Shown: positions 27,398-51,414 of the stretch, piece by piece | How the letters are laid out: the number at the start of each line of letters is the position of its first letter | Numbering within the stretch: the stretch's first letter is position 1 | Origin: Bacillota bacterium | Lineage (GTDB): Bacteria > Bacillota > SHA-98 > UBA4971 | Reading direction: 5' to 3' | Assembly (NCBI GenBank): GCA_030024085.1 | Contig: JASEJE010000009.1 | Span: 1 to 64,000 of the forward strand | DNA length: 64,000 bases | Made by a program: the position numbers and the translations under genes | The notes under the pieces: model-generated | The model's input: the letters and a program-made list of their open reading frames with translations, nothing else | Database searches by the model: none | What the model was told of the DNA's origin: nothing

Positions 27398-27675
27398 ACC
27401 CAAAAGAACCGTGCTATGCAACTGGCATGCCCGCCCGCGGCCCTGGCCGTCGGCGCACATCATCATACTACCACAAGTGCGGCGTCCTATCAAGGGAGGG
27501 GCGTTTCCAGGGAGGGCGTTTCCAGCGGTGGAACGGTTTCGGGATCCCGTGAAGTGGCTGGGCTAGAAGTCCGCTCCAAAACCCGTCGCTCTTCAGTGGA
27601 CACCACGCTAACACTCCGCGCATCAAGGCGTACAGGACGCCTTGATAGGTTCAGGAGGCGTTCTGGAGCAGGCTT

Positions 27676-28286
27676 CTAGTACTACTTTGTCAGATACGAA
27701 ATGCCACCCGGCCTCGTGGGCCTGGCGGGCTTGTCTGGCATGGCGACTCCTCGCCCCGGTGGTCCTTGACCGTGCACTCCCTGGAGGACCCGTGATGTAC
27801 GGAACGCGTAAGGTGGAAGTAGTGATATACGTCAGCAGTTGGATTCGACGCGTGACGAAGAGAACGCGTAATGCCAGGACCAGTGATGTACATCAGTCGA
27901 TCGTTCCCAATGATGACGTAGGGAACGGCTCAGGAGGAATCCGTGATGTGCGTCACTCGTCCCGGCTCGACGAGTGACCTATGGAACGATGCATGGAGAA
28001 CCCGTGACGGAGGGAACGGATAAGGCGGGAACGATGACGCACGTCACCGATTGGCTCCTGATGCGTGACGTGCAGAACGGGAAGAGCCTGACGAGTGACG
28101 TAGGTCACGCGTCCCCTGGCACGTGTGACGTTGGGAACGGGTAGGGCCGTGACCAGTGAGGTACGTCACCCGATAGCCCTCAATGATGACATAGGGAACG
28201 CTTAACGAAAAACCCGTGACGTACGTCAGCTGTCAGCTCAAGCGACGGCAGTACCAGGAGATCCATACGTAACAGAGTAGTACTGG
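27676..28286. mobile_element. Non-coding repeat-array element, copy 1 (TIR-bounded)
   Basis: A 611-bp element bounded by inverted ends: left CTAGTACTACTTTGTCAGATACG, right AACAGAGTAGTACTGG, whose reverse complement is CCAGTACTACTCTGTT. The left arm of about 110 bp matches the left arm of copy 2 at 50122. The middle is a 457-bp array of fifteen ~30-bp units. On the right only the last ~25 bases of the inverted arm remain; about 90 bases present in copy 2 are deleted. There is no credible ORF and no visible target duplication. The unit order and array length are identical to copy 2. Confidence 0.75.
27792..28248. repeat. Fifteen-unit ~30-bp repeat array (copy 1)
   Basis: Units of 29-31 bp each begin GTGAYGTA or GATGACGTA. 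Type A continues GGGAACGGGTAAGGC, as in GTGACGTTGGGAACGGG. Type B is a palindrome around GTGACGTACGTCAC followed by a C/T-rich half. The order is ABABABA-ABABABAB, with the same A-A step at units 7-8 as in copy 2. The DNA between motifs is not unique spacer sequence but a diverged part of the same unit. Confidence 0.85.
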
Positions 28287-49702: not shown

Positions 49703-49896
49703 GACGGCGCCACAGCCTCAACGACCGGCACAGGCGTTCGACTAAGCCCATTTTCCGCATTAGGAGCGCGGCTAAATTGACAAATGGCCTGCTGAAGGGC
49801 CAGTTGCCGGGGTCCTCCAACTGTTTTGCGACAGGTGACCATTGCGTCCTTTAGCTGGGAAGACGTTTCTACTGCGGAAAACGAGCTAAGTAAGGA

Positions 49897-50014
49897 TGCA
49901 GGAGACTGTTGATTTCCTCCACTTTATGGCAACGCAGCTCGGTGGAATCCCGGAAAACGGTTGCCGTCCACGGCCAAACTGGTAGCTACTAGGGAAAATC
50001 AACAGTCTCATGCA
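49897..50014. mobile_element. Small inverted-repeat element (MITE-like)
   Basis: A 118-bp sequence with ~22-bp inverted ends: left TGCAGGAGACTGTTGATTTCC, right GGAAAATCAACAGTCTCATGCA. The right end plus adjacent TAGCTA-type sequence recurs at about 15354-15388, so this is a dispersed family. It has no coding capacity. Confidence 0.65.
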
Positions 50015-50035
50015 GAATGCTCTCGACTTTGGGAG

Positions 50036-50080
50036 GGGCTCGCGGTGACTCAAAAGGAAAGAGTGCCACACCGCGAGCCC
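50036..50080. other. Hairpin with 12-bp perfect GC-rich stem
   Basis: GGGCTCGCGGTG and CACCGCGAGCCC are exact inverted copies around a 21-base A-rich loop, between the small inverted-repeat element and repeat-array element 2. There is no T-run, so it is not a classical intrinsic terminator. It may be the end of a decayed IS. Confidence 0.6.
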
Positions 50081-50121
50081 TGTAGCTGCGACAAAACCCG
50101 GAGGAATTAGCGAATCCTCAC

Positions 50122-50830
50122 CTAGGACTGCTCTGTCAGATACGAAATGCCATCCGGTTTGGCGGGCCTGGCGAGCTTATCTGGCAGGGCGACCCCTGGC
50201 CCTGGTGGCCCTTGACCGTGCAGTTCCCAGGAAACCCGTGATGTACGGAACGGGTGCCGCAGAAAGAGTGATGTACGTCAGCAGTCGGTTTCTATGCGTG
50301 ACGCAGGGAACGGGTAAGGCCGGGACCGGTGATGTACATCAGCGGATGGCTCTCAATGATGACGTAGGGAACGGCTCAGGAGGAACCCGTGATGTACGTC
50401 ACTGGTCCCGCTTCGACGAGTGACGTATGGAACGATTCATGGAGAACCCGTGATGCAGGGAACGGGTAAGGCGGCAACAATGATGTACGTCACCGATTGG
50501 CTCCCGATGCGTGACGTATGGAACGGGAAGAGCCTGACGAGTGACGTGCGTCATCCTTCCCCTTGCATGTGTGATGTAGGGAACGGGTAAAGCCCGGACC
50601 AGTGATGTACATCAGGGGATGGTTCTCAAGCGTGACGCAGGGAACGGTTGAGGAGCGACCCGTGACGTACGTCACCCGTCGGCTCAAGTGACGGTGCTAT
50701 TGTGCTACGTATGCATCCCTTGGCAAGACTGCGCTGTCAAAGGCCACCAGAGCAAGGACTTGGTCCATCAAATGGGCTTGCCAGACCCGCCGAATTGGAT
50801 AGCATTACGCATCTGGTAAAGTAGTATTAG
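50122..50830. mobile_element. Non-coding repeat-array element, copy 2 (complete, long TIRs)
   Basis: A 709-bp element. The first 100 bases, starting CTAGGACTGCTCTGTCAGAT, align without gaps and at about 70% identity to the reverse complement of the last 100, starting CTAATACTACTTTACCAGAT. Many differences are transitions that would still allow G-U pairs in RNA. Between the arms lies a 457-bp array of fifteen ~30-bp units with the same order as copy 1. No ORF is credible. I see no clear target duplication. Confidence 0.8.
50238..50694. repeat. Fifteen-unit ~30-bp repeat array (copy 2)
   Basis: Units such as GTGACGCAGGGAACGGGTAA (type A) alternate with GTGATGTACGTCACTGG or GTGACGTACGTCACCC (type B, palindromic core GTGACGTACGTCAC). 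The order is ABABABA-ABABABAB. The array is exactly as long as copy 1 (457 bp). Corresponding units in the two copies are more alike than neighbouring units within a copy, so the array was copied as a whole. Confidence 0.88.
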
Positions 50831-51203
50831 CACGTGGAGGGAAAGCAGGCACAGGCGAGCAAGTTCGGGCAGCAAGTTCAAGTACGCGGCTGACGCAGCG
50901 CCGCCTGCCGGACGGATGAGGGGTCAGGCGCGTCTGGGGCTCGGGGAGGACGTTTTCCATGAGGCCTTTCATCGATTACAGCCAGCCGTTTGCGTCGCGT
51001 CGCAGCCCGGTCATGGGACGCCGGGGGGGCGGCGGCCAGCTCATCTGGCGCGACTCCGACACCGGCGTGTTCATCTGCGGCTCCGAGCCTCGCAAAGACG
51101 GGTTGGCCGTGGCGTGGTAAGCAAGGAGGGGCGCGCCGTGAGGGGCTGACGCGCCCGCCCGCGCGCCGGCACCTGGTCATAGATTGACGAGGCGTCCCGG
51201 GCC

Positions 51204-51414
51204 GACTGGCTGGAAAGTGGTCACTTTTCGCGGCGCAGGTCGCGGGTTGGTCGCAGGGCGGCCAGCCTCAGCGAGCGACTGGCTGAAAATCAGCCACTTC
51301 GTCGGGGCAACTGGACGCGGAATGACCAGTCTGACCCACGGGCGCCGCAGCGTGGCCGCGGAGTGGCCGCTCTTGCCCGCGGACGTCAGCGACTGGCCAC
51401 GAAATGGCACACCT
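51204..51414. repeat. Three dispersed ~24-bp repeats (GACTGGC...CACTT)
   Basis: GACTGGCTGGAAAGTGGTCA at 51204, GACTGGCTGAAAATCAGCCA at 51277 and GACTGGCCACGAAATGGCAC at 51391 are variants of one motif. The second contains a perfect TGGCTGA/TCAGCCA hairpin. Function unknown. Confidence 0.55.

What the first reader, a model, noticed from the sequence alone, without database searches (positions are those of the whole stretch)
50122..50830. Copy 2 of the array element carries ~100-bp terminal inverted arms
The first and last 100 bases are inverted copies at about 70% identity without gaps, and over a third of the mismatches are G-U compatible. A transcript would fold the fifteen-unit array into the loop of a giant stem. 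Long inverted arms plus a conserved cargo array look like a non-autonomous transposon or a large structured RNA. Copy 1 kept only the last ~25 bases of the right arm, so the termini are preserved even after internal deletion, as expected of transposon ends.
Basis: seen in the sequence. Interest (0 to 1): 0.7.

Follow-up and report, generated by a model that had tools for sequence, protein, structure and literature searches.

The report
Two abutting MITEs mimic long arms
The apparent 100-base inverted arms are two related small non-coding transposons sitting side by side in opposite directions; the larger carries an unusual, conserved array of evenly spaced palindromic sites and has about 40 copies in this bacterium.

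Summary
The arms are real (50122-50224 versus 50728-50830, 73/103 matches; next-best opposite-strand placement 49/103), but they are not the two ends of one element. Forty loci in the genome match the element. The standard copy is about 611 bp: a 114-bp left end, 15 phased palindromic units and a ~38-bp right end, with ~20-bp terminal inverted repeats and YTAR/TA-type flanks. Three insertions have empty or near-empty sites in sister genomes. In the copy at 50122 the normal right end is missing, and an inverted 140-bp sister element (50691-50830) abuts at its own tip. That sister occurs alone elsewhere. The array element looks like the 140-bp element with an array placed inside it, which explains the inverted homology. 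Copy 1 is the normal form, not a deletion product. The giant-hairpin RNA reading fails: no covariation, and G-U mismatches (14) match A-C mismatches (10). The notable residue is the array: GTGAYG-TA-CRTCAC-type sites at 30/30/31-bp spacing, more conserved than their linkers and than the element ends, and also present in two other families of the class. No autonomous partner was found.

The parts
50122..50125 (.). CTAG flank of the array element (YTAR type), shared with the end of the neighbouring repeat of family II
50126..50237 (+). Left end (LE) of the array element; homologous to the LE of the 140-bp element X
50238..50687 (+). 15-unit phased palindrome array, 7 A sites (GTGAYGTACRTCAC type) and 8 B sites (GTGACGTAGGGAAC type), 30/31-bp spacing
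50688..50694 (+). Array tail GTGACGG; the normal ~38-bp right end that follows it in other copies is missing here. Junction with element X at 50691-50694
50691..50830 (-). Inverted copy of the 140-bp element X (the 'right arm'); core tip at 50695, TTAG flank at 50827-50830
27676..28286 (+). Copy 1: standard full-length array element with both normal ends
50020..50125 (-). Adjacent repeat of another family (II), ending at the same CTAG

Best explanation
Window 50122-50830 is a composite of two related non-autonomous DNA transposons (MITE-like) in opposite orientation. The first is an array element: LE plus a 15-unit palindrome array, normally closed by a ~38-bp right end, total ~611 bp; here the right end is lost. 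The second is a 140-bp element X, built of the same LE and right end without the array, and inverted so that its LE faces the first element's LE; this creates the 103-nt inverted repeat. Shown: copy number, short terminal inverted repeats, YTAR/TA-type flanks, empty or near-empty sites, X existing alone, junction at X's tip. Inferred: movement in trans by a YTAR/TA-targeting DDE transposase (IS5/IS427- or IS1182-like) that is lost, unassembled or missed; and the array acting as phased duplex-DNA sites for a dyad-symmetric DNA-binding protein, either the transposase or a host regulator. The long arms have no function as a unit.
For: 40 matching loci in the genome; apart from the query itself, matches covering the left and array parts stop at query 573-579. 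Full copies 610-644 bp with short terminal inverted repeats. The right arm has its own copies in sisters and aligns end to end with 140-bp X elements: 84% to X in G003/G004, 65% to the array element's own LE. Empty or near-empty sites for L021, L014 and L016. Exact 4-bp flank repeats 7/25 against 3.1 expected, p about 0.02. YTAR is the target of IS5 (PMC10359306) and IS711 (PMC2266754). A transposase-bearing element with CTAG ends exists in the genome.
Against: No autonomous element with X-type ends was found, and IS5/IS427-specific models were not tried. Flank repeats are imperfect. Two of the three empty sites are gapped. No empty site could be shown at this very locus. The composite rests on one draft assembly.
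Confidence: 0.85

Rival explanations
1. A foldback-type transposon with genuine ~100-bp terminal inverted repeats: the 709-bp LE-array-inverted LE unit is the mobile form and the other copies are deletion derivatives.
For: Long inverted arms present; both outer tips carry LE-type terminal sequence and YTAR-type tetramers (CTAG, TTAG), so the unit could in principle move.
Against: No other copy in the genome has this right part in this arrangement; the right arm is closer to stand-alone X elements of sister species (84%) than to the left arm (65%).
Confidence: 0.05
2. A large structured RNA with a giant closing stem, the array forming the loop.
For: Fold z-score -18.4; the array alone folds better than shuffles (z -6.6).
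Against: Covariation term -0.12 and unfavourable for the whole element; G-U 14 versus A-C 10 among arm mismatches; no Rfam match; the stem exists only in this copy. Array palindromes explain the remaining z-score.
Confidence: 0.03
3. The array is the real functional unit (a phased host-protein or transposase-loading site) and the MITE ends are only its latest vehicle.
For: A and B sites are more conserved (0.87, 0.88) than linkers (0.77) and ends (0.72-0.80). Arrays occur in G015 and G016 where I recognised no X ends in the flanks printed. The 30/30/31 phase persists in diverged arrays.
Against: Unrelated neighbouring genes; the amplification in G000 follows the LE/RE ends; transposase-binding repeats would also be conserved; older arrays may simply have lost their ends. 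Compatible with the best explanation rather than exclusive of it.
Confidence: 0.35

Closest known systems
MITEs of insertion sequences with YTAR targets (IS5; IS711 of Brucella)
   Same: Short non-coding element with terminal inverted repeats, YTAR or TA at the flanks, many copies; IS711 duplicates the TA of YTAR and prefers palindromic repeats as targets (PMC2266754); IS5 duplicates YTAR (PMC10359306).
   Different: No partner transposase with these ends found; the interior is a phased palindrome array.
IS1182-type element of this genome (DUF772 + DDE_Tnp_1, G000:C36 and C11) and its family Z MITEs
   Same: Same CTAG junctions, one CTAG shared with an array element (27676-27679); the transposase gene lies next to ends CTAGAAGCnnGCTCCAAA.
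   Different: Terminal sequence differs from X, so it is not shown to move X.
BOX elements of Streptococcus pneumoniae (from general knowledge, not tested)
   Same: Modular repeat with two fixed ends and a variable number of internal modules, dispersed in intergenic DNA.
   Different: Unrelated sequence; no 30/30/31-bp palindrome phasing that I know of.
Foldback transposons with long terminal inverted repeats
   Same: Long inverted arms around a loop in this one copy.
   Different: Arms belong to two separate elements; standard copies have only ~20-bp terminal repeats.

Membership tests
MITE (non-autonomous DNA transposon) | Short, non-coding, dispersed in many copies | tested here: met
   610-644 bp and 140-bp forms; 40 loci; unit spacing 30/30/31 is not a multiple of three; longest ORF inside is 72 aa
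MITE (non-autonomous DNA transposon) | Terminal inverted repeats | tested here: met
   CTAGTACTGCTCTGTCA ... TGACAGAGCAGTACTAG
MITE (non-autonomous DNA transposon) | Target-site duplication | tested here: inconclusive
   Exact YTAR-type tetramer on both sides in 7 of 25 copies against 3.1 expected, p about 0.02; TA alone also possible
MITE (non-autonomous DNA transposon) | Empty sites in relatives | tested here: met
   L021 contiguous in G003 and G004; L014 and L016 similar but gapped
MITE (non-autonomous DNA transposon) | Autonomous partner with the same ends | tested here: inconclusive
   None found with PF13358 (own genome), PF13546, PF01609, PF05598 (genus) plus end scans; draft genome, IS5/IS427-specific models not tried
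Foldback transposon with long terminal repeats | Long inverted arms shared by family members | tested here: not met
   Only this copy has them; the right arm is a separate element X
Large structured RNA | Covarying base pairs across copies | tested here: not met
   Covariation term -0.12; unfavourable in the whole element
Large structured RNA | Defined transcript | not testable with these tools
   No expression data
CRISPR array | Near-identical repeats with unrelated spacers | tested here: not met
   Repeats are 14 bp and variable; linkers are homologous between copies; cas genes not searched for

The most novel reading that the evidence does not exclude
The 30/30/31-bp phased array of GTGAYG-TA-CRTCAC-type dyads is a distinct selected DNA module, a nucleoprotein scaffold or transposase-loading array, found in several genera of this class and amplified in this genome by capture inside a 140-bp MITE.
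Probability: 0.35. Interest if true: 0.6.

Novelty: new variant of a known kind. Interest (0 to 1): 0.35.

Why it matters
It shows how two abutting small transposons can imitate a giant inverted-repeat element or a giant RNA hairpin. It also leaves a testable oddity: a MITE-like element whose most conserved part is a phased palindrome array rather than its ends.

Tried and rejected
Rfam scan (only a tRNA far away). IMG/VR scan for the A-B pattern: no match. GTDB species scan: only the sister MAG UBA6811. IS630 (PF13358), DDE_5 (PF13546), DDE_Tnp_1 and DUF772 transposases as partners of X. Covariation in A-B-A segments and in the whole element. G/T versus A/C mismatch asymmetry in the A palindromes: an apparent strand bias at one pair (64 to 8), but it reflects a few ancestral unit types and is not independent evidence. 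Empty site at the slipin-carA locus: the sister intergenic regions differ too much. Genes next to arrays in G015/G016: unrelated, mostly housekeeping. Literature: nothing held that describes this family.

Full report
Observation. Bases 50122-50224 and 50728-50830 are inverted copies, 73/103 without gaps; the next-best placement of the left arm on the opposite strand of the window is 49/103. Between them lie 15 units at 30/31-bp spacing: seven palindromes of type GTGAYGTACRTCAC and eight hybrid sites of type GTGACGTAGGGAAC. The 709-nt fold has z = -18.4, a standard copy -6.3, the array alone -6.6. Of 30 mismatches between the arms 24 are transitions; 14 are G-U compatible and 10 are A-C, so the G-U fraction is what transition-biased divergence gives.

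What the family looks like. The genome (G000, 65 contigs) holds 40 loci that match (my count of separate loci). Apart from the query itself, matches covering its left and array parts stop at query position 573-579 (window ~50694-50700). Full copies run 610-644 bp, mostly 610-621, and have LE CTAGTACTGCTCTGTCAGATACGAAATGCC... and RE ...CATATGTGACAGAGCAGTACTAG, that is, ~20-bp terminal inverted repeats with YTAR-like outer tetramers.

What the right arm is. Searching the intergenic region in the genus showed that window ~50703-50830 has its own copies in sister species, for example G003:C73 at 90% and G004:C46 at 87%. Read out, these are small elements, four of the seven examined exactly 140 bp, with the same LE and RE types and mostly YTAR-like flanks but no array. 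The right arm aligns with them over the whole 140 bp: 84% to X in G003/G004, 65% to the array element's own LE. The array element is therefore X with a ~465-bp array between LE and RE, or X is its array-less form. At 50691-50694 the array tail GTGACGG is fused directly to X's tip; the array element's ~38-bp right end is gone. A fusion at an element tip suggests a transposase-cut event (inference).

Mobility. Joined flanks of L021 align contiguously with G003 and G004. L014 and L016 show the same in shorter or gapped form, with bases or neighbouring segments differing at the site. Exact 4-bp flank repeats occur in 7 of 25 copies against 3.1 expected from shuffled pairing (p about 0.02); TA alone is also compatible. 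IS5 insertion is accompanied by a YTAR duplication (PMC10359306); IS711 duplicates the TA of YTAR and is reported to prefer palindromic repeats as targets (PMC2266754). Neighbouring repeat families share single YTAR-type sites with the array elements: family Z ends at 27679 where copy 1 begins at 27676, and family II ends at 50125 where copy 2 begins at 50122. An IS1182-type transposase (DUF772 + DDE_Tnp_1; the IS1182 name is from general knowledge) is encoded next to Z-type ends, so Z elements probably have a partner. No partner with X ends was found. MITE surveys note that partners are hard to find because only the ends are conserved (PMC3852290).

RNA reading. RNAalifold on A-B-A segments gives a covariation term of -0.12, and whole-element folding gives no favourable covariation term, although its consensus energy is lower than that of column-shuffled alignments, as expected for palindromes. 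Nothing matches Rfam there.

The array. In 23 full or nearly full copies the A and B sites have mean pairwise identity 0.87 and 0.88, linkers 0.77, the left terminal repeat 0.80, the right end 0.72: the interior sites, not the termini, are the conserved part. A model built from the array finds it in five of the six genus genomes searched and in two other families of the class (G015, G016), at 30/30/31-bp spacing even where linkers have diverged. I recognised no X ends next to the G015 and G016 arrays in the flanks printed, and the neighbouring genes are unrelated. The conserved core GTGA-N6-TCAC resembles a CRP/FNR-type site (resemblance only, from general knowledge). My reading is that the array binds a dyad-symmetric protein, the transposase or a host regulator; this is inferred, not shown.

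Verdict. Two related MITE-like elements abut in opposite orientation. The long arms are a by-product; the phased array is the part worth further study.

Noticed in passing
window 49742-49891 and 49885-50040: Two further dispersed inverted-repeat families with many copies in sister species (90% identity and more); the first has YTAR-like ends (CTAAGCCCATTTTCCGCA ... TGCGGAAAACGAGCTAAG).
   Followed up: partly
window 27563-27679: A family Z MITE (CTAGAAG..GCTCC ends) abuts copy 1 and shares its CTAG; its likely autonomous relative is an IS1182-type element in contigs C36 and C11.
   Followed up: partly
L160 / G015:C8 about 150400-151200: In another family of the class the array lies between what looks like the end of a CRISPR array and a second array of different palindromes (CTGCCAAGATTCTTGGCAG type).
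   Followed up: no
window 51203-51410: Another set of spaced imperfect palindromes (CTGGCTGAAAATCAGCCA type) upstream of carA, similar in style to the array.
   Followed up: no
array unit positions 18 and 27 (ancient arrays): In diverged arrays two linker positions, T18 and A27, are also conserved, symmetric about a second axis 15 bp from the palindrome centre.
   Followed up: no
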